From assembly GCF_037975245.1 (NCBI RefSeq), contig NC_092565.1, forward strand, positions 18,705,999 through 18,769,998: a DNA stretch of 64,000 nucleotides, given 5' to 3'. Both the position numbers and the translations under genes were made by a program. The notes under the pieces were generated by a model, which made no database searches, was not told the DNA's origin, and worked only from the letters and a program-made list of their open reading frames with translations. This document shows positions 1 to 63,939 of this stretch, in pieces; the stretch's first letter is position 1; each line of letters begins with the position of its first letter. This DNA is from Apostichopus japonicus (lineage: Eukaryota > Echinodermata > Holothuroidea > Aspidochirotida > Stichopodidae).

Positions 1-145
1 ATAAACAAAGCACCGAACCGGGGAATCCCTACTTGTCATATGACTGGTTGCAATGATAACGGCTATGGCAGGCCCTGTGGGACAAATATACCATATTATA
101 TCTGAATATCTACACGTACTAATTCGAATATGTATGTATGTATTT

Positions 146-338
146 TAGATCCTCATGCAAGCAGGGACTTGCGAAGAAGCCATCATTGGCTTATCAAAGC
201 CGCAAGCTGACCGAAGTCAGTCTCTTACATTCGTATTTAACGTCCATGATGATGAATTGTCAATTGGCAGCAACTCTGTAACTGAAATCAAAATCAAAAC
301 TCGAACTCGGGACCTTATGATTGAAAGGCACCGGCCTT
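146..338 (-). mobile_element. tRNA-derived SINE, minus-strand copy lacking most of the tRNA head
   Basis: This is the reverse complement of the SINE at 688-911. It shares the tail block (GATCCT...GCAGG), the GCAAGCTGACCGAAGTCAGTCTCTTA segment in pieces, and the block ending AAGGCACCGG. The tRNA-like head is cut at its A-box end and runs into a TATACCCG-type array. Confidence 0.75.
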
Positions 339-687
339 TATATAAATATACCCGTATATACCCGGCCTCTATATACCCGTAAAGTTTTCCCGTATATACC
401 CTTAATATACCCGGCCTTTATAAATATACCCGTATTAATTCGATAATATACGCATATTAATTGGAATACATACGCAAAATAAATCAGCCAATCATATTGG
501 TAGGAATATATAAAAGTATTGATTCGAGTATATACGCGTATTAATGCGAACATAATACGCGTATTAATTCAAATGTATCAGCTGATTTAATACGTGTATA
601 TATTCAAATCAATTAGCCTATATATTCCATTTAATACCTGCTCATGTGATTGCTTGATGTTATACGTGTATTTATTCGATTTAATTA
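339..687. repeat. Degenerate AT-rich tandem array between SINE arms
   Basis: The first part is irregular repeats of TATACCCG (about 340-440). The second is repeats related to ATACGCGTATTAATTCGAATA (about 430-680). No coding potential is seen; open frames here follow from the repeat. Confidence 0.6.
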
Positions 688-911
688 GGGAGTGTTAGCT
701 CAGTGGTTAACGCCGGTGCCTTTCAATCATAAGGTCCCAAGTTCGAGTCACTCCCAGATTAATTTATGTCGTCCAGTTACAGAGTTGTTGACAATTAACA
801 ATTCATAATTATGGAAGTTAAATATGAATGTAAGAGACTGACTTCGGTCAGCTTGCGGCTTTGATAAGCCTATGAGGCTTCTTCGCGAGTTCCTGCTTGC
901 AGGAGGATCTA
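688..911 (+). mobile_element. tRNA-derived SINE, full-length copy
   Basis: The 5' 68 bases (688-755) fold as a tRNA-like head: GGGAGTG at 688-694 pairs with CACTCCC at 749-755, an A-box-like TTAGCTCAGTGGTTAA follows, and a B-box-like GTTCGAGTC lies at 741-749. About 155 bp of unrelated body ends in GAGGATCTA and a (CATA)n tail. Related copies lie at 146-338, 4543-4696 and 58000-58212. A and B boxes would be an internal RNA polymerase III promoter; current activity is unknown. Confidence 0.8.
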
Positions 912-1030
912 ATATATATACATACATACATACATACATAATACACGTACATATTCGAATCAATACTTGTGTATGGTATATTTGTCCCTCGGGGTCTACC
1001 ATAATCGGCAGCGCAATTTGGGTCATTGTC

Positions 1031-9229: not shown

Positions 9230-9266
<37 letters not shown>

Positions 9267-18625: not shown

Positions 18626-21600
18626 TTACAAAACATCCCTTGTCTTTGTTGATCTTGTCAGACGTGGAATAGCTGCGGCACTTTTGTCACTCCCTAAATT
18701 CTTGTAAGACTGTGCGAGGATTATTGTGCCGCAGTTCAAACTCAAAAGTGCGATGCTAGCCATCTGAAGCCAGAAGGAGTAACCCAAGGCTACACCGGTT
18801 GAAGAGTATCCCAGATTCTGCTCGGCCGTGCTGGTTACCTCTCCATCGAACGTACCGAACAGCACACTCGTGAGGAGAATTAACGTGACTGACGAGAGGA
18901 TAGCTGTGGAGAAAGAGAGGTAAAAATAATTTATTTTAGCCTTAAATCATAATGTGCTAAAGTCTAATGGTCGCATGCTAGCTCTTTATTTTTATCGAGA
19001 TTATATTCTCCCTTTTCTTCCTCTTCTCCCATTCCGAAGTAGGGAGACTATTTTGCTAATTAGTTGAAAATGATTTTCTGGTGGCTGAAGTTAATTATTT
19101 AGCATCGTTAGCAAGTTTTCTGTATCTTGAGGTGAAACCCAGATAATCATCTGAAGCATTTTGTATTGGAATTGGAAGGTTTCAAATTTTGTGATATTTT
19201 TGTAAATTATACATCTGGCAACACCAGAATTGATGTTGTCTTCAGGATAGTTCATCTGAATAGGTGTTTGTTTTACTTTATAATATTTCAATCATTTATC
19301 TACAGAGGAAAAGAATATTTCTTAATTTTTTTAGAAAAAAGCATATTGATGAAATTTTAAGTACAGAGAAAAATATTCCAAATTTATCAGATTTTAAGTT
19401 TATACCAATAAGAAGATAATAATAGCCTAAATAAAGCTTGCCCAGATGACTTCACAGACGCCCTACCGTGATCCAACTTTCTGGAGAAGTTGAAGGTTTA
19501 GCCAGTCAAAAAAATAGGGGGTTACATTCAATAAACCATATCTCAAATTAGAGAAGTTGAAGGTTTAGCCAGTCAAAAAAATAGGGGGTTACATTCAATC
19601 AACCATGTATCTCAAATTAGAGGGGAAGATATTGAGATAGGTTTCCAACTAGTAGTGTGGAAAGCTATTCCTCGATATAAGTTTCTCATTGTTTGTCACC
19701 AGAAAGTCCTCATTAGTCTCTTAAATCCTCTTAAGTCTCTTAAATCCTCTTATATCTCTTAAATCTCTTAAGTCTCTTAAATCTCTTAAATCTTCTCTAA
19801 GTCTCTTCTTTTAAGTCTCTAGTTCTCTTAGTCTCTCTAAGTCTTTTCAGTCTCTAGTACTTTAAGTCTCTCTAAGTCTTCTGTAGGTCTTCTCTAAGTC
19901 CCTCTTAAATCTTCTCTAAGTCTCTTCTTCTAAGTCTCTAGTTCTCTTAGTCTCTCTAAGTCTTCTCTAAGTCTTCTCAGTCTCTAGTACTTTAAGTCTC
20001 TCTAAGTCTTCTGTAGGTCTTCTCTAAGTCTCTCTTAAATCTTCTCTAAGTCTCTTCTTCTAAGTCTCTAGTTCTCTTAGTCTCTCTAAGTCTTCTCTAA
20101 GTCTTCTCAGTCTCTAGTACTTTAAGTCTCTCTAAGTCTTCTGTAGGTCTTCTCTAAGTCTCTCTAAGTCTTCTCTAAGTCTCTTCTTAAATCTTCTCTA
20201 AGTCTTCCTTAAGTCTCTTAAATCTCTTAAATCTAAAAAACTTAAATCTCTTAAATCTTAAATCTCTTAAATCCTCTTAAGTCTCTTAAATCTCATATGT
20301 TAGTATAAGCCTCCTCTTCAATCCCTCTCTCCCTCCCCTTTCCCATCTCCTTGATTCATCCAGGGAGTATTTTCTATTTGGTGTCATCTTACCTCCAAGC
20401 ATGTTATAAAATCCTAATGCCATCGGACCAACTGCACTGGAGAACTTTTCATTTTTGAAGATGTTAATGAATGATAGAATGGTTGCTATGAGTGCACTGA
20501 CAACTGCAAAGCAAGTGGTTAGGATGGCGATGTAGACGATCAGAGGGTGTAACGAATCATTGTATTCATCAAAAACTGAAACAAACAAGAAATAACTTGT
20601 AAATAACCCCAAAAACATGGTTAAAAATATAAAATAAACCAAAGCAGGATTCAGTATTCTGCACTGAATTTATTTTAAGTTTATTGGAATTAATACAACC
20701 CTAGTGCTGTTTCCTTCTACTGTATGTACATGACGATGTATTCAAATAGTCTGAGGACAACAACAAGCTTACATGCCTTGAATCTAATATGCGGTTTAGG
20801 CCAGTCCTCTACGGAACGCGAAAAGGACCACAACTTATGATGATCTAACTTTATACGTTCATGTACTCAAAAACTTACGATCATGTACTAAAAATATTCG
20901 ATGATGTACACAAATTTAAGATGTACATCAAAACATGCGATGATGTACTAAAAACGTAAGACATATACAATCATGTACTGAAAACTTGTGATGATGATGT
21001 AAAGCGTAAGTTACCAAAAAGTGGCGTATGAATATCCATTATTGTCGTTTGAATACGGGTATGAATATCAATATGTAAGTGTCTATTGGGGCGGTGCTTA
21101 TATTGGATGAATACACAGGGTCCCTATTATTTTGCTCCTTGGTACGAAGGTTAGTCTCAACGTAATGAGAAGGGCATTGACCAGAGTGGCCGGTCATAGA
21201 GAGCGCACAGATTTAAAAGGTTACCAGTTCATTCTAGGCACGGTAGTTCAAGAGTGCTAAGGTTGTGTGGGGAGACAGGTAAGAGAGGAGAAAAGTAAAT
21301 GTGTTTTTCTTAGGCTGCACTACAGTATACTTTATGTACAAGTAGTACTTTTAACCTTGCAGCTATACAGTAAGTATGGTGATTCTAACACTTTTTTCCC
21401 TCCTTAAGATTCTACAGTACAGTAGAGAACAGTATGTTTACATGAACAGTAGACTTTGCCATTTGGTTTCAGCCTACCTGCAAAAAAAAAAATGATTCTG
21501 AAACAATGATAGACCATTTTTCTTGATCATACTTAATCAACACCTGCACTTTAGAAATTGTTTTCCCCTCAAGCATTGCATAATTAGGCTACAGAACACA

Positions 21601-24600
21601 TTGCAGCTTAAAATGTACAGTAAAAGCCACATGAACAGAATAATGAGAAACAAAGTCTGTGCTGGGCTCAGTCAGTACAGTATATACTTTCTTCGAAATA
21701 ATTATACATGTAACGTTAGGGCTAGCCTATGCTTTAGTATATAGGCCTACCGTACTTAGCCTATGCGGGATTTTTAAAATAAAACAATTTACTACTACCT
21801 GATTTTAAGAAATGGATTCCCAAGATGCTACAGAAAAACGAATAGAGGAGTTTGTTAAAATGGGCTTTACTAAAAGGGAAATGGCAGATAGGCTCGATAT
21901 AAGCGTAACCAATTTGAAATGCATTACTGTAGGTTATCCTTGGGAATTAGGTAGAAGGATGTTACTTCAGTTGTAACTGGTGAGCATATCATTTACAAGC
22001 CTAGGGCAGTTCAGAGTTTATTTAACAACCAGTTAGTACTACAAGAAGTAGCAATCTGCATGACATCAATTTTTTTTTTTATGTTACAATTACAAAGTCA
22101 TTTATACCAATTAGAACATTATTGGCATTTGATGAACTATATATAGTTTTATTTGAGTGATGAAATGGCCAATGACCAACAACATCGAATCTGATGTGAT
22201 GTGATATAGGCAAATGATTAAAAAACAAAAAACTGACCAATAATAAGGCCTACTAAGCTAGGCCAAGCTAGGCCTAATAATACCTAGGCTAGCCTAACAG
22301 TTATTATTAGCTGGCCTACTGTAACACTAACAATTAATCCTACTTAAGACTACTGGCTACTAGAGGCCTAGCCAAGGGCAAGGCTATACAGTAGTATACT
22401 GTAAAGGCCCAGGCTTGTAATTTGGCCTCCTAGTATACTAGTTACTAACTTAGTCCCACTAGGCTGCAAAGTACAATAAAACTTAAAGACTAAACTACAG
22501 CATTAGGCCTACATAATTTTACTTATTATTAAGCCCTTTTCTCTCAGTCTCACTCTGAATCTGCCCGAAATGTGCAGTAGTGGTCAGCGGGATTGATTTA
22601 TATGGCACAGGTGGTACCAATGGACCTTAATAGAGAATTAAGTGACCTGGGCCATTAAATTCTTTGTGCATGAGAGATATGGGTCTTTGAGTTTGAGCCT
22701 AGCCTTAGGCTAAGCTAGCAGTAACACTCTATGTGCAGTATTATTACTCACTTTAAATGAATATTAGTATGCTACCCGTTGATTACAAAGTACATTACCC
22801 CGAGGAATATCAAAGTTGTTACCGAAGTCCCGCCCCTAATGGTTCTTAATGAGTTTACACTGAATATTCATACTCGTATGTAAACGCCACATATGAATAT
22901 ACATACACCTATGCAGACGCCACTTTTTTTTAACATAACATTATTAGCACATTACCGTACATGTTTTGATGTACATCGTACGTTTGTAGTACATGATCGT
23001 ATATATGTTTAGAACATGATCGTATACTTTTAGTACATGATCGTATATGTTTGGTACATGATCGTAAATTTTTAGTACATGATCGTGTATTTCAAGTACA
23101 TGATCGTAAGTTTTTAGTACATGATTGTATAAAATGAGATCATCACTATCATCATCACATGTTGTGGTCCTTTTCGCGTTCCATAGTCCTCTGTGTGGTA
23201 GTAATGACAGTGTTATACAGTAGGTTTTCAATTAGGTTAAAAATCAGGCTCTGACTCAACCATGGGTGTTTGTAGGGATAGGAACCCGGTCAACTTTGCA
23301 CCGGGTCCCTCGGGAGAGATAAAACAGTAGAAAGCAATTCCATAGTAAAGAATTAGACTATGTGCACAGAGTATGCTATATATAGCACTAGTCTACTAGA
23401 CAATATGTATCAGGGAACCAAACAAGGAATATATGTTTGCTCCATTATATTGATTATTCTTTGTGTATTAAGAGTCATTTTGCAAGTCTGCCCTCAATAT
23501 CCCTCCATTCTTTTAAGAAGTTGATAAATTGCTCTGTTGGCACTTTGCTGTATGCCAGCCAACTGTTACTGTTCATTTGTTAGTATTACAGTAGCAGGAC
23601 AATGAAAGCTAACAAACCGTTTTATTCATATATTTTCATGATGAATTAAACTGACTACTGAGAGTTATCATTTAAGTTCCCAACATATTGGAAAAAGAGT
23701 ATTTATTTGCTTTGTTTTCCTTCAGTATAATGATTTGTACTCTTTCTAAAAAATAACTGAATGAGATGGTGGTATATTGCAGATAATATCACATTTACTT
23801 ATCATTTGGAATAACTATTTACAGTGACCGTATATAAAGTTAAACATACTGTATATCCTATTCAAGTAGTCTGTGCTGAAATTGCTGAATAATGAAATGG
23901 TTGTTTGAACCTTAACTCAGATATATATGGGTTTACATTTTACCTTGCACAATGGACCTGAGCTCAAATAAATTGTATTAGTTTGTTCTGCATTTTTGTC
24001 ATAGAAGATTTTTTAATATATACAGGTAAAGGTCATTTGATAATCATTTTATGATTGCTTTAGTGTTAGACTTCACACTGGTGTTCTAAAAAGGGAAGCA
24101 AACCTCAAGACACATCCTGATATCCTAGACATGCTTGTGATGAGGAATCTTCAAAATATTAAAATAAGAGAAAATATCGCTCTATTCAGGAGATTTATAC
24201 CTTTGCTTAATTCACTATCAGTCAACCAATGCTCTTAATCAGCCCATTGGGCAACACACTTTTTTCAATTCCGTGAACACCCTGATGGGGCAAATGAGAG
24301 TATAAGACCAGGGAGCTTTAGAGTAGCAGCTCCCTGATAAGACAACAACTTTGGTAAATATGTAGATCCACACAGGTCATTCAATATGTCACTCACCAAG
24401 AAATTCTTTCACCTCACTGGCACCTGCGTCATCAGTAGTCAAGAGCTTACTGCCCCTGAAAATGCCAAAGTTGATGGAACCGGTGGTTTGTCCCCCACTA
24501 TTTACAATTGTTGCAGTAACCATGTACTCTGTAGGCAGACTCATAGACAGCATGATAAATGCACCCAAAGCAAATAGGAAAGTGATGTAGTAGAGAATCT

Positions 24601-33801: not shown

Positions 33802-36800
33802 GTAAGATACTTCCGGTCTTTATTTGTCATTCTAAGGTATTATTTTAGGGAGAAAATGAAAAGCAGAAAGAAAAAAAATTGACTACATGAGTGAGGGAGG
33901 GAAGTTGCAAGGTTGAGGAAAGAAATTGGGGATGGATGAAATTTGTTGACTAGATTTATTGATATCAGGAAATTAACCAGATGCATATTGAAGCTAGAAA
34001 ATTTAATTGTGTTGTATCATATTTTGTACATGTTGATGGAGAGATTTTCAGTTTTCAATGAAAAATTTGAGCAAAGTAGTAACATATTTTGTATTTGTGG
34101 CAGACATCAAGAGTCAGGTTGGGCTTTTGGGGATAAATATGTCACCAGGCCCACTTTATAGGACTCCCCATGTATCCCATGTTTTCTCAGCCATCTTCAT
34201 CTTTCTGTTGCCCCCAAATTGACCCTGAGCTGAACTGTAGGCTCACGAAGCCCCCCCCCCTCTTGTCAGACCTGGGGTGGGAGTAGATGTCCATCATCCC
34301 TATCAAATATAAGACACAGGTCAAGAGTTGCATTTGCTTCTCTTATTCATGAAACTATGATCATGACTTTCTTCTACAGGCGTAAGAGGTCTGGTGACAA
34401 AGGGGACGTGGTGGAGACGCCCGGCGACCTCATCGTTAAGAAGATGACCTTTGACCGAGTGGAAGAGCTGAAGCAGATGTTAGCTGACGACCGAAAGAAG
34501 TTCAAACTCTTGAGAGATGAAATCGAGCTGATCGAAAGTGGAGCCCTGGATGAAAAACTTCCGGAAATTTTACAGGATATTAAAGAGTGAGTGGTTTCAA
34601 TGACATCAGTGCATGTCTGATGATTCAAAGTAGGTTTTGTGTTGATTTTGATCAACATTTGTTACTTCTTTTGATATTTTTTATTTGATTTTTTTATGTT
34701 TAATACTTGATTTTTTTTTATTTGGATAATTTGGATAAACATTTGATACTTCTTCAAATTAAATTGTCACAACAAGGCAATTCTGTATCTTGACTAGTCA
34801 AGTGTCATTTCAAGAAATAATTTTTTTTTTAGAATTTTAAAAATTTCTGATATAATTTTTTGCATGAACTCAATAAAGCTATACAAACATGTACCTGTCT
34901 TGGTGATGTAAGGTTTGAAGCAGTATCGAATGAATTCATTGCTCGCTGAGTAATGTCCTATTGGTGAAAAATGTAGGATGAGTGTCTTTATGTGATCAAA
35001 TGTTATCTGTAGATGTGAAATTAGCCCACGTAGGAAATATTGATAGGCCAGGAAGAAAATACATGGATAACTTCGAAAAGAAATATGGCCACTAGAAAAG
35101 GGCAAATGCAATAGGGGAAACATATATCAATCTTTAAGAACACTATGTGAAGAAAACAAAGGCGTGTAAAAGAAAAGTACCAAAGCCATGTACAAAACAC
35201 AGTGCATGCTATGTAGAATAATACAAAGTGCATGTCATGTACAAAACACAGTGCATGCTATGTAAAAAAATACAAAGTGCATGCCATGTAAAAAAATACA
35301 AAGTGCATGTCATGTAGAAAATACAAATTGCATGCCATGTAGAAAAATACAAAGTGCATGCCATGTAGAAAATACAAATTGCATGCCATGTAGAAAAATA
35401 CAAAGGGCATGCCATGTAGAAAAATACAAAGTGCATGCCATGTAGAAAAATACAAAGTGCATGTCATGTAGAAAATACAAATTGCATGCCATGTAGAATA
35501 TACAAAGGCTATAAATTAACTCCACTGTCCGTAATAAATCAAAAACAAAGGTTAAATAGGAAACTACAAAAGCCGTGTATGAAATTAGCAAAAGCAGTTT
35601 TGAAGAACATGAAAGGCAGATAATTTAGAATAAATACAAAGGGTTATGAATAAGAACAATACAAAGGTTAGTGTGGAAAGGCTACATACTGTCGGAGATT
35701 ACAAAAAGCTCCCCCCTCCCCCCCCCAAAAAAAAAAATAAGAATAAAAAGGACATATAGAAAGTCACACTTGCCATGCTTAGACTTTAATTTTGGAAAAT
35801 ATAAATATGATTATTTAAATGTTAAATCATTAATTTTGTTTGCAGAAAGAAAAGACAGGCCGAAGAACAAAAGTTGGCAGAAGAAGCTGCCGCAGCTGAA
35901 CTTTTAGGTGGGTCAAAGGTCACCATCAGTATTGATTTGGTGCACTAGATATTCATCACATTTAATTAACATTTCTATCTTTATTCTTTTTTTTTTTACA
36001 ATTTCCCATATTCTGTTTTGCAAAAGTGGCAGTTTTCCTGTAACAGCTTCCACATATACTGTACATGTTAGTATGTATCAGAATGGCACTTCTTTCTCTT
36101 GGACTCCCTCCCTCTCAGTCATAATCGCTGCATGTTGGATTGCCTTTAAATGAAACAGGATCCTTTTGTTAATACACAGAACTTACTTATGCAAAGTTGT
36201 ATGGCTTCTGATTTAAACTATTTTTGTAAAGAAACGGCTTAATAGGGATGGTTCATCGTCAAGGCTGAAAAGCTTTATAGTATGTCTAGCATATAGCATC
36301 TGTTTTCTTTTGGTCACTGCTTTCAGTCCTTTTCTATATCAAACTCTCTTGTCTGGTTTTTGCTTTTCTTTTTTTTTACAGTTTAACTGTGCTTTTGTTT
36401 ACAGACTTAGTACTGTGTTAGAGCCAGCTAAGATTTTGTTTAATTTCCTTTGTATCATCGATCACATGCCATTCAGTTCTTTCGGAGACAGCTTGAAGTT
36501 TGTCAGTCATCTTGGTAAATTGTGATAATTGTTTGTTTTATTTGCTGCTAAACGGTTAGAATTTGTCATTTTTTTGTACAAATTGCAGCAAAGAAAGAAG
36601 AACAGAAGAAGTTGCCGATTGTGAGAAAAATTCCACGACAAACAGAGGCAGAGACAAAGGATGCGGGAGTTTCTTCACCTCTTGAACAGAAGGCAAGTGT
36701 AAATATTGTTACAGCATTTTGAGGTATTAAAAAGATATGTAAAAGTAAGTTGGCCTGACGTTTCGATCCTAGCAGGATCTTCTTCAAAGGCTAAATGACA

Positions 36801-42800: not shown

Positions 42801-45800
42801 AAATTTGTATAGACCTGCATATTCAAATAGAGGGGTGTGGCCGTCTTTACGGTCGCCAAAATATTTGGAAGGTTGCCAAAATATTTTGGAAGGAAAAAAA
42901 ATGTTAGATATTAGTTGGAAAACAAGTGGAAAAATCTTGAACTTGAAATTACTTCAAAACTTGCAAAATAGAGTTAAGCTCCCTTTTTGCAGCTAAGCAC
43001 CCTTAATTATACAAGTTACCAAAGATGAGGGATGGGGGATATCTTCTTCAGATAACCCTTCCCCAGGCCACAAAATCTGCCACTTGAGGTTCACCAAGAC
43101 CATCAAGGTAAAAAATTGGGTCATGCAACAAAAGAATAACAGCTAAGTAAGGTATAGCCATCGTTTTCATATGTTCCTGATTCTCGAAGAAGCAATTTGG
43201 ACCTTTTGCTATATCTGTTGATATTATTAATGAGAGACTGCTTTGAAATTATTATTCAAAACTCCCGATATGCTTTCAAGTTTCACATAGATATAAAAGC
43301 TTATAACCCTTGCCATGTTTTTGGAACCCCAAATATTAACACGTTATAGTCATGCATTTGCAAACCTTCTTAGTGCCAATTTCTGCAATCCATTACAGGT
43401 GTGGAATTTAGTGCAATTGTCTTTTTGTTTTCGTTTCAAATTTCATTCGATACTAACACCTCGCCATATTGCGTGGAAATTCTACTCATCGTGACTAACA
43501 TATCATCCCTCAGTTGTTTTCAAATGACATTTGATCCTGGGTTTCTTCCCATAAGTAAACAAATTTATTGTTTCTTACATTTTTTAGTGTCATAAGATTC
43601 ATTCACCACTGTAAGATATTTTGTTTTTCCTTTTCAAAATAACTATCACATTATGGAGTCAAACCCCATTGTGTGGTAAGTGTGGCACCAACAAAATATA
43701 ACTGTTGTTAATGGAATGCAGCTAGCTACTTCAATTTGGACAAGAATACTTGATGAGAAAAACTGTATTCCCTCTCTTTCTGATGCATATCCTTGCTCAA
43801 ATTCACAAGGAGATTGCTACAAGGTAGAATGCCTGGACAATACTTCCTCAATGTGTGTAGTTTCCAAGTTTATAATAATATGCCCGGGGTCACAATAGAA
43901 ATTTGAAATTATAGTCGATTCATATAAATAACAAATAGTAGCAATTTAATTTTTCAATCCTATTCAAAGACACCTGAATGAGTTTCAACTTACAGAGACC
44001 GATGGAAAATTATGAATATTAAAAGTAGTTGTCAGCTTGGCAATCAAAGAATAAAGCCTATGGTACTCATCAAATAATTTTACAGGTCACCAAATATAAA
44101 AGCTTTTAACTTGACTGTAAATTTTGGAAATTCTTGGATGCACTCAAGAACAGCAAGACTGATTCTTACCGGTTGTTTGATCTCCTGAGACGACTAAAGT
44201 CAGTATGTCCGATAACAGCTCCTTTTCAGGTTGCCTAGAATATATGACCATTCTAGAAATGGTAAACACCCTAACGGTCAGACGTGTGGTATTAAATTCA
44301 ATGTTTATTCGGCAACCAAGGTTTGCTATTTGTTCATCCAAGGATATTTCTTTCAAAAAAAGTCCGGACAAGATGGAGCAATTTTTCTTATTTTCAAGTT
44401 TCATTATTTGCTGTACGATATATATCTACCCGTATAAAACTGTTTAACACGCTTTGTTATTAACCGAATCTGTACATCGCAAACTTTTTTTTTGGGTGGG
44501 TATCTATTGATAACAGAATGCTTTCAAGGACTTTGCATAATCCTATCTAAGAATAATTCAGGTCCCCAGTCATCGAGACATCATGTGAAAGAAAGGAGAA
44601 AAAGAAAAGAAACCTGGAAGCTATTAAAGCTGATTTCTATGAATGAATAGGAACCTTGCTTACATGTTTGTACTGATATAAACACGTATTATTGCAAATA
44701 TTTCCTCCGTACTAATGTAAACATCTTAAATAGCAGAACATGTTTCTTGTCATTCATTCAAACATTTATGGTTATGGACAGCTTGTTCACAAGACATAGG
44801 TGACAGTATTCATTTGGATAAATGCTACTTTTTCTGCTGATGCAACTGACAGTGTGAACACCTTAGTCTTCTAGCAGCAAACCCTAGTAGTAGTAGTAGT
44901 AGTATCAAGCACACATTTCAATCTCTTGTCAGTAGATATATATCCAAGCTCTACCAGCCACACTTTATTTTACTAGTAGTAACAACTTAGTCTACTAGCA
45001 GTAACACTAGTAGTAGTTTCACACACACATTTCAATCTCATGTCAGTAGATATATATCCAAGCTCTACCAGCCACACTTTATTTCACTAGTAGTAACACC
45101 TTAGTCTACTTGCAGTAACACTAGTAGTAGTTTCACGCACACATTTCAATCTCTTGTCAGTAGATATATATCCAAGCTCTACCAGCCACACATTATTTCA
45201 CTAGTAGTAACACCTTAGTCTACTAGCAGTAACACTAGTAGTAGTTTCACGACACATTTCAATCTCTTTTCAATATATATGTACCAGCTCTACCAGCCTC
45301 AACAATTTATTCTACCTGCAGTAACACCTTAGTCTACTAGCAGTAACACCTTAGTCTACGAGCAGTAATACCTCATTGAAGTAGTAGTACAACCCTTTGA
45401 TCTGTGTACTCTACCAAAACTAAATACTTTCTTCCACTAGCAACAACAACACAGTATTAATTACATCATAGTCTACTAACAGTAGTATTAGATTGAAGTT
45501 TATAATTCATACTGAACTTTTATATAGGTTCATATATGGTTAAAATTGTTAAGTCACATAGTTGTCATGGATACAAAACTGCATGGAACATGTATACGTA
45601 TAATCTGCACATATTATATACCAGAACCATTACAATTGAACTGGACTCATTGGCTAATGTAAGTTGAAAACTGTTGTAAATTGTGAAAGGTGTCTTATTA
45701 ATTGGCAATAATCATTAAAGAATGACCTTTTTTCAAAAATAAATCATACAAGCAGTTCTAGTTAATCAGGGGCACTATAGTCTTGGATTTAATATCCTGA

Positions 45801-61000: not shown

Positions 61001-63939
61001 AAGCTCTTGTCATTCTGGCAAAGCCCGATTTGCACATCAGTAGATATGCAGAAATCTAGCTTAGCCATGTATATATGGGAGTCCCAATCATTGAATAAAC
61101 ATCAGATTAATAGAGAAGTGAACCATTCAATAAAACCTATCAAAGCTTTGCTAAGTTATTTTTTTTTTTTTATTGCTAAGTTATTTTAAAGAACATTACT
61201 TTATACATAACAACAATTTTCTTGTTCAAATTCTTTGTCTGTCCTGCACTTTTTATGGACAGAAATCACAGATTTATGTTTTCAAGTGCCTGATCATTTC
61301 AGTAATGGTGGAAACTAGATGGCGGCAAATCCAATGCAAGCATCACCATGTTTGCTGAGGAAGCAGGACACTTCGCCCAACAACCATTTCGCCCAACTGC
61401 CATTTCGCCCAACCTTACCATTTCGCCCAACCAGCCTGGTCATTTCGCCTAACCAGCCTGGTCATTTCGCCCAACCAGCCTGGTCATTTCGCCCAACCAG
61501 CCTGGTCATTTCGCCCAACCAGCCTGGTCATTTCGCCCAACCAGTCTGGTCATTTCGCCCAACCTTGATTAAATATGATATTTCAAAAGGAAAACGTTCG
61601 GGAATTGTTAACGTTACAGGATACGAACCGAATATTAAGGAAACTTGAGGATTGATCAGTGTGTTAGGGGTTAGGTTTGATAGTAAACGTTCGAATATTA
61701 AGGAAACTTGAAGTCCTTTACTTTGTATAACTTTAGTAAGGAAACGTTCGGGAATTTTTAACGTTACAGGATACGAACCGAATATTAAGGAATCTTGAGG
61801 ATGGATCAGTGTTTTAGGGGTTAGGTTTGATGCTTTTTAGTCACTTCGCCCAACAACCATTTCACCGCCCAACAAACACAGGGGAATCGGTCTTCATAAA
61901 GACCTAGGTTTGATACTGTAGGTCTTTATGAAGACCGATTCCCCTGTGTTTGTATAATAATGTAACTTCCATTGTATGCGCAAACGCCTAAAGTAGTGTA
62001 ATCCTCCCATTATACCCGAAATAACTGCTCAGACTCCGATCGATATCGAGCGGACCTCATTTTTTTATTTACCTATTACGAAGTAACCTTACCCAAAATA
62101 AATCAAATTGAACTAGTGGAATAGAAAAAGTAATATTATTCTGACTGAATATTAGTAAAAATAAGGTTGGGCGAAATGACCATGCTGGTTGGGCGAAATG
62201 ACCAGGCTGGTTGGGCGAAGTGACCAGGCTGGTTGGGCGAAATGGCAGTTGGGCGAAATGGTTGTTGGGCGAAGTGACTAGAAAGCTTTGCTGACAGATG
62301 TTAATTTTTACGAATAAAATCAAGCGTCCTATTCTACACATATAAAGCCTGACAGAGGGCTTTGTTAATATCATAGTTAGGTTTCATATACCTTCAATTT
62401 CAACGAAAAATAAACCCATCTGAATCACCCTATGAATATTCAGCATACTTCTTCTCTCAAAGTTTTGGTCGTTAGGTTAAGACTAAACCACTTCTGCATG
62501 TACCATTCGATTGACTTCCAACGCAGGCTCGAAATTGTTATCCAAGGCTTAACATTTTTTCTTTTCAGGAACCCACTATGGTGGAATCCTAGTTTTCAGA
62601 GTGCCGAGCCAAGGAACGAACGTGACTCTTTGTCAAACCTTGAAATGTCATGACTACCCCATCACGGCAATAGCCACAGAGGGCGCTGTCATGGCCAGTG
62701 CTGACGATAGCGGAGGAATCACGGTTTGGGAGACGGTTCAGGACCAGGTTGGAAGAGTAGCTAAAATAAATGGAGGAGGGTAAGAGATGACTCCGAACAG
62801 TTTTAATTTGAAAAGTTTTTTTTTTACTAAAAGTGATTTAACAACAATTCTGTTCAATTCTTACAAATATGTTATTCAGACACTTTTGTTATATTATTAT
62901 TGTTAAGCCCATAAAAGCTTTTTCAAACACTGTTTAAATATAATTAAAGTTGTTTTGATTATTTGAAATTAAATTTCAATACTTAATCTAATGAACTGCT
63001 TGGTAATCCACAGAATGTTCCCAGTTTAAAGTAAAATGCCACTAAATAGCATAATATCAGAGTAGATGCAGTTCATTACCAGGAGAAGACAAAGCAATTT
63101 TTTTATTTATTTATCAATTTTATTTACTATAAAAAAAACTTGATATGTCGTTAAGTATATGAGTTTTAAGCATATGTTACCAGAAGTGCAGGGCCAAGGA
63201 ACCATGCCTTCTCCTGCGATGGTAGGCCAAGGAACCATGCCTTCTGTTATTGTAGGCCAAGGGAAAATGCCTTCTGTAATTGTAGGTCAAGGGACCATGC
63301 CTTCTCCTGCAATTGCAGAACTTTTAATGGAATATCGGCAGAAAGGAGTTAGCTCATGAAACAGGGCAAGTTCTTTTGCAAGTATAAATAAATATATAAA
63401 TTCAATCTTTTATGTATTTATTTATTTTTATTCTTTAGATCATCATGCACATCCCTGGTGGTCTACAAACAGATGGTGATTGCTGGTTATGGTTCGGGCC
63501 ATATCAGGATATTTGATGCATTCAAAGCCACCATGATGGTGGAGGTCTGCGCCCATGCCAGGTGGATCCATGCTATTGATTTAGCTCCAGACAGTGGTCT
63601 GGTAAGTAAGACGTTTAATTCTATGCATGTCATTAAAAGATCGCTTTGTTGTTTCATTCGACCAATACGCTCGTAGCTGCAAAGTTGTGAAGAGGAAACT
63701 GTTAACCATTACTTCTCTTCTAAAAGTTCCCCTTTGGCAAAAACCTAGACTACAGTCATCCTTTCTCTGCTCTTACCTTCCCTCCTAAAACCAAGTATGT
63801 GGAAATAATAGTTCTCAAATTCTGGACATTCATATTAATATTAACAAAATCTTTACTTCTTGTTTGATAGCTGGTGTCAACTTCTGAAGACACTTTTGTT
63901 AGAGTCTGGTCCATACTGAAGAAGCAAGATGACGTTCAT
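55067..63939 (+). CDS. WDR54, WD-repeat domain protein 54, 3' end beyond window
   Basis: Seven coding exons, phase-consistent: 55067-55297, 57822-57884, 59584-59650, 60796-60849, 62569-62779, 63439-63601, 63871-63939, then a GTAAGA donor. They give 286 residues against about 334 in human WDR54, so roughly 50 C-terminal residues are missing off the edge. Seen: N-terminus with NNLSALVIPDKQLTTYAVVH (human: NNLSVLQLPARNLTYFGVVH), LVLCSQQGVQMFESDGSVMV, HDYPITAIATEG then SADDSGGITVWE, VIAGYGSGHIRIFDA, and STSEDTFVRVWS. The repeated S.D...VW pattern marks beta-propeller blades. The start ATG is the first in the exon and fits the human N-terminus. Cellular role in this organism is unknown; the mammalian protein has been linked to growth signalling, which I would not transfer. 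Confidence 0.88.
55963..56237. mobile_element. MITE with 18-bp TIRs and telomere-like core, WDR54 intron 1
   Basis: The ends GTGGCTATTCTTACGACT (55963-55980) and AGTCGTAAGAATAGCCAC (56220-56237) are perfect inverted repeats. The direct repeat ATTTTCGTCC lies 3-4 bp outside each end (55950-55959 and 56242-56251), probably the target duplication. The centre (56080-56127) is a degenerate TTAGGG array. A second AGTCGTAAGAATA-like motif lies just inside the right end (56185-56195). Confidence 0.78.
57398..57437. repeat. Imperfect hairpin in WDR54 intron 1
   Basis: AATTTTAGGGAACATG and CATGTGTTTCCTAAAAATT pair with one or two mismatches around GTGAAA. The left half recurs at 57443-57460. Confidence 0.55.
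58000..58212 (-). mobile_element. tRNA-derived SINE, full-length minus copy, WDR54 intron 2
   Basis: The same family as 688-911 with body and tRNA-like head (GGAGTGTTAGCTCAGTGGTT on the minus strand at 58212-58193). It is about 10-15% diverged by eye and follows a TGTATGTATTTTTA tail. Confidence 0.8.
59876..60264 (+). mobile_element. Second SINE family, tRNA-derived, WDR54 intron 3
   Basis: The head (59876-59950) has A-box-like GTGGTCAAGTGGTTAAGG and B-box-like GGTTCGAGCCC, like a Ser/Leu tRNA. A 310-bp body follows with ATTGCGTTGTGTCCTTGGGC, TGTATAAATGGGGACC and CGTGTGAGGAGGCATTAGCC, then an ACTTTAACTTTAACC tail. The GC content is higher than in surrounding DNA. Relationship to named deuterostome SINE cores was not tested. 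Confidence 0.75.
60265..60470 (+). repeat. 103-bp tandem duplication
   Basis: AGAATAGTGGGAAATGTAGG starts at 60265 and 60368. The copies differ at only a few positions. It abuts the SINE tail directly. Confidence 0.88.
61369..62276. repeat. Foldback element with inverted TTTCGCCCAAC arrays, WDR54 intron 4
   Basis: The left arm (61369-61565) starts CACTTCGCCCAACAACCATT and has six tandem units of CAACCAGCCTGGTCATTTCGCC (24 bp). The right arm (62165-62276) is its inverse and ends GGTTGTTGGGCGAAGTG. Between them are two direct copies of ACGTTCGGGAATTNTTAACG... (61592 and 61744), a third internal terminus (61850-61880) and a perfect hairpin (61873-61952). No protein and no clear target duplication is seen. 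Confidence 0.8.
61873..61952. repeat. Perfect 32-bp stem hairpin
   Basis: Arms 61873-61904 and 61921-61952 are exact reverse complements (CAAACACAGGGGAATCGG... and ...CCGATTCCCCTGTGTTTG), loop 16 nt. It lies at the centre of the foldback element. Confidence 0.9.
63192..63317 (+). repeat. 30/33-bp minisatellite, open in frame, WDR54 intron 5
   Basis: Four units (33, 30, 30, 33 bp) of GGCCAAGGAACCATGCCTTC-type sequence. All lengths are multiples of three, so a frame reading GQGTMPS-P/V repeats stays open (63159-63359). It is preceded by GTGCAG, which could act as an acceptor. Most likely intronic. Confidence 0.8.

What the first reader, a model, noticed from the sequence alone, without database searches (positions are those of the whole stretch)
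20803..23192. TIR transposon with subterminal minisatellite arrays and an 8-bp target duplication, superfamily unclear
Sequence shows 24-bp inverted ends (one mismatch), perfect AGTCCTCT flanks, and inverted subterminal arrays of TACATGATCGTA units, which could be transposase-binding sites. The one ORF is a small helix-turn-helix. The end sequence is not one I can place. hAT, P, Zisupton and Novosib all make 8-bp duplications, so this may be a new family.
Basis: partly seen in the sequence, partly recalled or inferred. Interest (0 to 1): 0.8.

Follow-up and report, generated by a model that had tools for sequence, protein, structure and literature searches.

The report
IS3EU transposon with phased end arrays
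This is a non-autonomous "cut-and-paste" DNA transposon that fits the known IS3EU group, one of hundreds in this genome; it duplicates 6 rather than 8 target bases, and its transposase-bearing relatives carry evenly spaced repeats at their ends and often sit beside a ubiquitin-ligase-like gene.

Summary
The element is real and repeated: its end core occurs 284 + 255 times, against 3 + 1 for the reversed control. Its boundaries lie one base further out. Two paralogous empty sites carry one target copy. These are published IS3EU features; an 8-bp superfamily is not supported.

The "small HTH" is a frameshifted transposase exon 1. A sister-family copy (23,521 bp, TSD TTTTCG on both sides) has that exon followed by integrase-core (rva_4) exons. 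Among window-family copies examined, none encodes the rest.

Beyond the finding: end arrays with a 20-22-bp period, or its double, occur in six related families with different unit sequences, though not only in IS3EU. 33 of 82 rva_4 loci have a HECT-like gene downstream on the opposite strand; random placement gives 0.17.

The parts
20804..20809 (.). left target-site duplication GTCCTC (6 bp)
   Evidence: 21 of 28 copies have exact 6-bp duplications
20810..20834 (+). left terminal inverted repeat TACGGAACGCGAAAAGGACCACAAC
20850..21005 (+). left subterminal array, degenerate, units like TACGATCATGTA pointing inward (limits approximate)
   Evidence: TRF 20853-20914, period 21; 7 units, spacings 18, 22, 21, 39, 30, 24; autocorrelation alone shows no clear peak here (best z 2.9 at lag 43)
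21007..21068 (.). inner inverted repeat, left arm (TGGCGTATGAATATCC...), pairs with 22864-22937
   Evidence: pairs I3 and I18
21812..21976 (+). remnant of transposase exon 1 (helix-turn-helix-like); frame lost after TNLK, so only about 36 residues are homologous
22864..22937 (.). inner inverted repeat, right arm
   Evidence: pairs I3 and I18
22940..23131 (-). right subterminal array, 21-bp period, units TACATGATCGTA on + strand (inward-pointing when read from the right end; limits approximate)
   Evidence: 7.4 copies, period 21; lag 21, z 9.8
23161..23185 (-). right terminal inverted repeat GTTGTGGTCCTTTTCGCGTTCCATA
23186..23191 (.). right target-site duplication GTCCTC (6 bp)

Best explanation
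A 2,376-bp non-autonomous, internally deleted member of an IS3EU family of DNA transposons. Shown: exact boundaries, a 6-bp duplication, TAYGG..CCRTA ends, hundreds of related end sequences, single-copy paralogous empty targets, and homology of its ORF to exon 1 of an integrase-type (rva_4) transposase. Inferred: the element is moved in trans by a DDE transposase of its own family (not found here) or of the sister family with nearly the same end. That enzyme would bind the inverted repeat and, through its N-terminal HTH, the inward-pointing units spaced 21 bp apart (about two helical turns, so on one face of the DNA). It would cut the element out and join it across a 6-bp stagger that repair turns into the duplication. 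The window copy cannot itself supply transposase: its exon 1 is frameshifted and no catalytic exon was detected in it.
For: Ends and copy number: 284 + 255 sites against 3 + 1 in the reversed control. TSD: 21 of 28 exact 6 bp, 4 with one mismatch, 3 none. Paralogous empty sites with one target copy for L012 and L027. Published IS3EU features: 6-bp TSD, TIRs over 30 bp, TAYGG..CCRTA (PMC12730594, passages); TA..TA termini, TSD usually 6 bp (PMC10045372, parts 1-2 of 5). Exon-1 homology to sister copies. The sister copy on contig C6 has an HTH exon, then rva_4 exons (E 2.9e-07, 5.9e-42, 3.2e-21) and a weak, below-cut-off rve match, bounded by matching ends and TSD TTTTCG/TTTTCG, 23,521 bp. In 26 window-family copies the units point inward 429 times against 23, and 21 bp is the commonest spacing (185).
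Against: No copy with the window's own end-type and catalytic exons was found: 27 fetched pairs plus seven further copies fetched by their exon 1, some only in part (L030, L031/L038, L032/L036, L033/L037, L034, L035, L039), show at most exon 1. The probes there were sister-family exons, so a diverged exon could be missed. 3 of 28 copies lack a duplication. The window ORF has no Pfam match above cut-off (best E 0.19); its homologues match HTH models only below cut-off; the AlphaFold model from one sequence is poor (mean pLDDT 66). Array binding by the transposase is untested. The sister transposase was not placed in a tree with Repbase IS3EU proteins, which are not held here. The flank overlap (8 bases) does not by itself tell 6 from 8.
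Confidence: 0.93

Rival explanations
1. A member of, or new family beside, the 8-bp superfamilies (hAT, P, Zisupton, Novosib, Merlin).
For: AGTCCTCT is literally present on both sides of the window copy; 4 of 28 copies match over 8 bp in that frame.
Against: 6-bp duplications in 25 of 28 with at most one mismatch; the extra two bases are the element's own terminal T and A; empty sites fit a single 6-bp target; the related transposase is of integrase type.
Confidence: 0.02
2. The HTH ORF is a functional truncated repressor of transposition (in the manner of short P-element proteins), kept by selection.
For: The start and about 36 residues of exon 1 are kept in several copies (5 places at E below 1e-9 including the window, one of them with a stop).
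Against: The frame is broken in the window copy; the C1 copy has a stop, the C16 cluster copies have stops or frameshifts, and the C23 copy lacks six residues and the start Met; the tail of the window ORF is out of frame.
Confidence: 0.06
3. The terminal arrays are neutral minisatellites generated by slippage or gene conversion and have no role in transposition.
For: Tandem arrays are common in the window (48 TRF rows). Five of 243 control segments have a best lag of 20-22 with z above 4, none of them in an assigned IS3EU element, and two of these five lie in another element with 22-bp inverted arrays whose L040 copy has an apparent 8-bp duplication.
Against: Inward polarity 429 to 23 and dominant 21-bp spacing; a period of 20-22 bp or its double in six families with different unit sequences.
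Confidence: 0.3

Closest known systems
IS3EU superfamily (Repbase; Kojima)
   Same: 6-bp TSD, TAYGG..CCRTA ends, long TIRs, and integrase-core transposase in the sister copy; a second gene opposite in orientation to the transposase is also described for fungal TET+ IS3EU (alpha-kinase)
   Different: The window copy is non-autonomous; end arrays with about 21-bp period and a HECT gene are not mentioned in the passages I saw
GingerRoot (Selaginella; same lineage as IS3EU)
   Same: 6-bp TSD and mostly TA..TA termini
   Different: The original paper is not held, so only its summary in PMC10045372 was compared
IS481EU (parabasalids)
   Same: Related integrase-type transposase group
   Different: TSDs of about 4, 15 or 25 bp and TNT..AYA or TGT..ACA ends
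MtPH-A6-4 PIF/Harbinger elements of Medicago
   Different: 60-bp units and 3-bp TSD (start of abstract); another superfamily

Membership tests
IS3EU | 6-bp target-site duplication | tested here: met
   21 of 28 exact, 4 of 28 one mismatch, 3 of 28 none; single-target paralogous empty sites for L012 and L027
IS3EU | termini TAYGG..CCRTA | tested here: met
   TACGG..CCATA in the window; TATGG..CCRTA in 26 of the other 27 (L027 starts CATGG)
IS3EU | TIR longer than 30 bp (as stated for fungal families) | tested here: met
   36-nt arms at 92%; further inverted pairs lie in the arrays
IS3EU | autonomous relative with an IS3/integrase-type DDE transposase within the same ends | tested here: inconclusive
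   Met for the sister family (C6, 23,521 bp; its end differs from the window-family end by 3 of 24 bases); not found for the window's own end-type
IS3EU | transposase groups with IS3EU/GingerRoot in a tree | not testable with these tools
   Repbase proteins are not held
hAT / P / Zisupton (8-bp group) | 8-bp target-site duplication | tested here: not met
   4 of 28 copies in the 8-bp frame, explained by chance extension of the 6-bp TSD
hAT / P / Zisupton (8-bp group) | transposase of that superfamily | tested here: not met
   Tested on the sister-family exons only: rva_4 and a weak rve, no hAT, P or Zisupton model listed at E up to 1
IS481EU | TSDs of about 4, 15 or 25 bp and TNT..AYA or TGT..ACA ends | tested here: not met
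   6-bp TSD and TAYGG..CCRTA here; features

The most novel reading that the evidence does not exclude
The window element is a deletion derivative from an undescribed IS3EU radiation (host unnamed, probably an animal) in which the mobile unit is large, framed by inverted subterminal arrays whose 20-22-bp period is kept while their sequence changes completely, and in which transposase and a convergent HECT-type E3 ubiquitin ligase form an old two-gene cassette. The ligase would act on host repair or silencing factors, or on the transposase itself.
Probability: 0.55. Interest if true: 0.65.

Novelty: new member of a known kind. Interest (0 to 1): 0.5.

Why it matters
It removes a possible new superfamily and replaces it with a placed one, showing how a one-base misjudged end plus two chance matches turns a 6-bp duplication into an 8-bp one. 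Following it up exposed two features that can be tested directly: end arrays spaced about two helical turns apart in divergent IS3EU families, and a convergent HECT-like gene beside 33 of 82 transposase loci. If the second holds, these transposons carry their own ubiquitin machinery, as fungal TET+ IS3EU carry an alpha-kinase, which raises the question of what host or self protein is being marked.

Tried and rejected
Rejected: the 8-bp duplication. Rejected: the ORF as an independent small protein. Looked for and not found: sister-family exons 2-6 in the window-family copies held; an rva_4 match close to an HTH match of the window type, judged by eye from the two coordinate lists, the rva_4 list resting on 150 of 224 candidates; an empty site of the window's own insertion (only its two flanks match); HECT similarity in window-family copies with three HECT query pieces at E up to 0.01. 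Right ends of families F4, F5 and F6 were not found in the 12-12.5 kb held, so their ends and arrays are judged from the left end only. I first took the C6 element as lacking a right end; one search showed it 23.5 kb from the left end. No strong target preference stood out in 21 exact TSDs. The structure model was too poor for a fold search, so none was run. The organism was not identified. One facing pair of exact ends in the list (C17:4448713 and 4456218) was overlooked and not fetched.

A first version of the HECT/rva_4 pairing used 99 of 143 and 58 of 96 rows; it was repeated with all 143 and 96 and only those numbers are used.
Full report
What is there. The sequence at 20803-23192 was read. 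The inverted ends, the flanking AGTCCTCT and the arrays are all present. TRF gives 7.4 copies of a 21-bp unit at 22975-23131 and 2.9 copies at 20853-20914; the repeat finder gives 36-nt inverted arms with 92% complementarity at the ends. The 54-aa ORF is at 21812-21976 and has no Pfam match above cut-off (best E 0.19).

It is a repeat family. The 21-base end core with up to 3 mismatches occurs 284 times forward and 255 times reverse in the 671.6-Mb assembly, against 3 and 1 for the reversed control. Only the first places, all exact, are listed there. From them I fetched 27 facing pairs: 16 short elements (0.36-0.75 kb), three of 2.1-3.6 kb and eight of 6.4-8.8 kb; one further pair (C17:4448713 and 4456218) was overlooked. 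With the window copy that makes 28. The 15 short copies L012-L026 are a median 86.7% identical in 105 pairs; the window copy is a median 90.9% identical to them over 387 bp (best segments).

The boundaries. Moving each boundary outward by one base gives TAYGGAACGCG...CGCGTTCCRTA and an exact 6-bp duplication in 21 of 28, one mismatch in 4 (L006, L007, L009, L025) and none in 3 (L010, L011, L014). L027 starts CATGG instead of TATGG. In the window the duplication is GTCCTC; the outer T and A are the element's, and the matching genomic A and T are coincidences.

Empty sites. The joined flanks of L012 match window 4015-3978 across the junction with a single CATAAC (34 of 38 bases, a short palindromic motif; a match in L057 has a 3-base gap). 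Those of L027 match L058 (78%) and L038 (72%) across the junction with a single ATCGGT and CTCGGG in place of ATCGGG. These are diverged paralogous sites in repeats, not allelic ones. For the window's own insertion only its two flanks were found, overlapping by the 8 repeated bases.

Placing it. PMC12730594 (passages only) describes IS3EU of rust fungi as making 6-bp TSDs with TIRs over 30 bp ending TAYGG..CCRTA. PMC10045372 (parts 1-2 of 5, and passages) gives TA..TA termini, TSDs usually 6 bp, 45 Repbase families of which 17 autonomous, and one lineage with GingerRoot. The window element meets the end and TSD criteria. The superfamily name first came to me by recall and was then checked in these papers.

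The ORF. A protein search with the 54-aa ORF gave 43 places. Close copies continue past the window's break as ...TTLKRIRLSLGIRKKDVTSVVT, so the window ORF is exon 1 with its frame lost after TNLK. More distant matches (about 55% over 29 residues) lie in a sister family whose end differs from the window-family end by 2-3 of 24 bases.

The transposase. A genome search with rva_4 (PF24764; the accession was recalled, and the tool returned the name rva_4) gave 143 matches from 150 scored of 224 candidates. On contig C6 an HTH exon (L049:1250-1438) is followed in order by exons carrying rva_4 pieces: E 2.9e-07 (WHIDG), 5.9e-42 (SDKGGEN to NQRIERLW, which I read as the second D and the E) and 3.2e-21; two further exon-like frames have no Pfam match. 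A second copy on C17 is 97.7% identical over 6.4 kb. The end of this family, TATGGAACGCCAAAAGGACCAC, has 156 + 157 sites. The C6 copy runs from 17696204 to 17719724, 23,521 bp, with matching ends and TSD TTTTCG on both sides; about 1.7 kb near its right end was not read, and part of its length may be nested insertions. Shorter sister copies have TSDs CATTCA, AGTATC and CAGAGC. Sister exons other than exon 1 have no match in the window-family copies held, so the window family looks non-autonomous here; assembly gaps, unlisted end sites and divergence prevent a stronger statement.

The arrays. In the 26 of 28 window-family copies scanned (L009 and L011 left out), the 12-bp unit at up to 3 mismatches points inward 429 times and outward 23 times (16 in shuffled sequence); the commonest spacings are 21 bp (185), 42 (58) and 30 (36). 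The per-column conservation in that call is partly circular because the unit was used to find the rows. Autocorrelation was run on 16 ends of 8 of the 28 copies: the top lag is 21 or 42 in 13; the others are 43 (window left end, z 2.9) and 40 twice. It is 22 in 4 of 4 ends of F2, 42 then 21 in the three F3 ends (C6 left and right, C17 left), 42 in F4 (z 5.0, only 1.8 at 21), 22 in F5 and 20 in F6. Of 243 control segments of the window, 5 had a best lag of 20-22 with z above 4. From the re-scan these lie at 9251 (AT-rich), 45001 and 45251 (a minisatellite), 61251 and 62001; the last two belong to another element whose nested copy in L040 has an apparent 8-bp duplication, CTAATGTT. So arrays of about 22 bp are not exclusive to IS3EU. 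A second IS3EU-like element at 64-1003 also shows lag 22 (376-625, z 5.8). That arrays are transposase-binding sites, and that 21 bp puts them on one face of the helix, is inference.

A passenger gene. In the C6 element a HECT C-terminal piece (E 4.4e-08) lies on the opposite strand, downstream of the transposase; other open frames there gave at best HECT at E 0.045. Families F4, F5 and F6 each have an open frame with HECT matches (E 1.2e-07, 8.2e-06, 8.8e-08, covering the C-terminal third of the model) in the same arrangement. The F6 protein matches those of F4 and F5 at 25-37% identity; the two F3 pieces matched no other held locus. Genome-wide, HECT gave 96 matches. Using all 143 and 96 rows, merged into 82 and 58 loci, 33 of 82 transposase loci have a HECT locus within 15 kb downstream on the other strand, none has one within 15 kb in any other arrangement, and random placement on the same contigs (lengths known for some, else approximated by the largest coordinate seen) gave a mean of 0.17 and a maximum of 2 in 1000 trials. 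The genome search missed the HECT frames of both F5 copies, so 33 is a lower bound. Many loci are copies of one another, so these are not 33 independent captures. 49 of 82 transposase loci show no such neighbour; of the 19 best-scoring rows 12 have one. Fungal TET+ IS3EU have an alpha-kinase gene opposite in orientation to the transposase.

Print. Full-text searches for IS3EU with HECT, for 'HECT domain', 'DNA transposon', transposase and passenger, and for four of five related terms found no paper. 'HECT domain' with 'DNA transposons' and transposase found one, on bacterial death domains, seen as a listing only. IS3EU with subterminal found none. Repbase itself and the GingerRoot paper could not be read, so a description there is possible.

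Verdict. An ordinary but well-preserved non-autonomous IS3EU element, not a new superfamily. The more interesting result is the architecture of its relatives.

Noticed in passing
window 64-1003: A second IS3EU-like short element: TATGGCAGGCCCTGTGGGAC...GTCCCTCGGGGTCTACCATA, TSD AACGGC/ATCGGC (one mismatch), with about 22-bp-period arrays (422-570); a tRNA-like stretch (agtgttagctcagtggttaacgcc...) inside looks like a SINE (recalled resemblance, not searched)..
   Followed up: partly
window 61372-62273; L040:1885-2583; L011:235-1598: An element with inverted 22-bp arrays (CATTTCGCCCAACCAGCCTGGT). The L040 copy is absent from L041 and flanked by CTAATGTT, an apparent 8-bp duplication, so it probably belongs to another superfamily..
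   Followed up: partly
G000, 33 loci counted: Convergent HECT E3-ligase-like genes beside rva_4 transposases, at 33 of 82 transposase loci and 33 of 58 HECT loci.
   Followed up: partly
L042:2344-2676: An open frame containing MSQFCVVGGCSYTSSNK resembles a THAP domain (recalled, not searched); it lies in a stretch of about 1.6 kb that L040 lacks.
   Followed up: no
L007:1115-2644: A 510-aa open frame resembling a non-LTR reverse transcriptase (recalled, not searched) lies in a stretch that L003 lacks, nested in a long window-family copy.
   Followed up: no
window 44894-45373 and 35197-35507: Minisatellites of 114 bp with a 22-bp sub-repeat, and of 26 bp; no transposon ends were assigned to them..
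   Followed up: no
G000:C17:4315993-4494516; C16:1049124-1125381; C1:20037932-20072641: Clusters of window-family ends (7, 3 and 3 exact ends) within short regions, perhaps local duplication or a preferred region.
   Followed up: no
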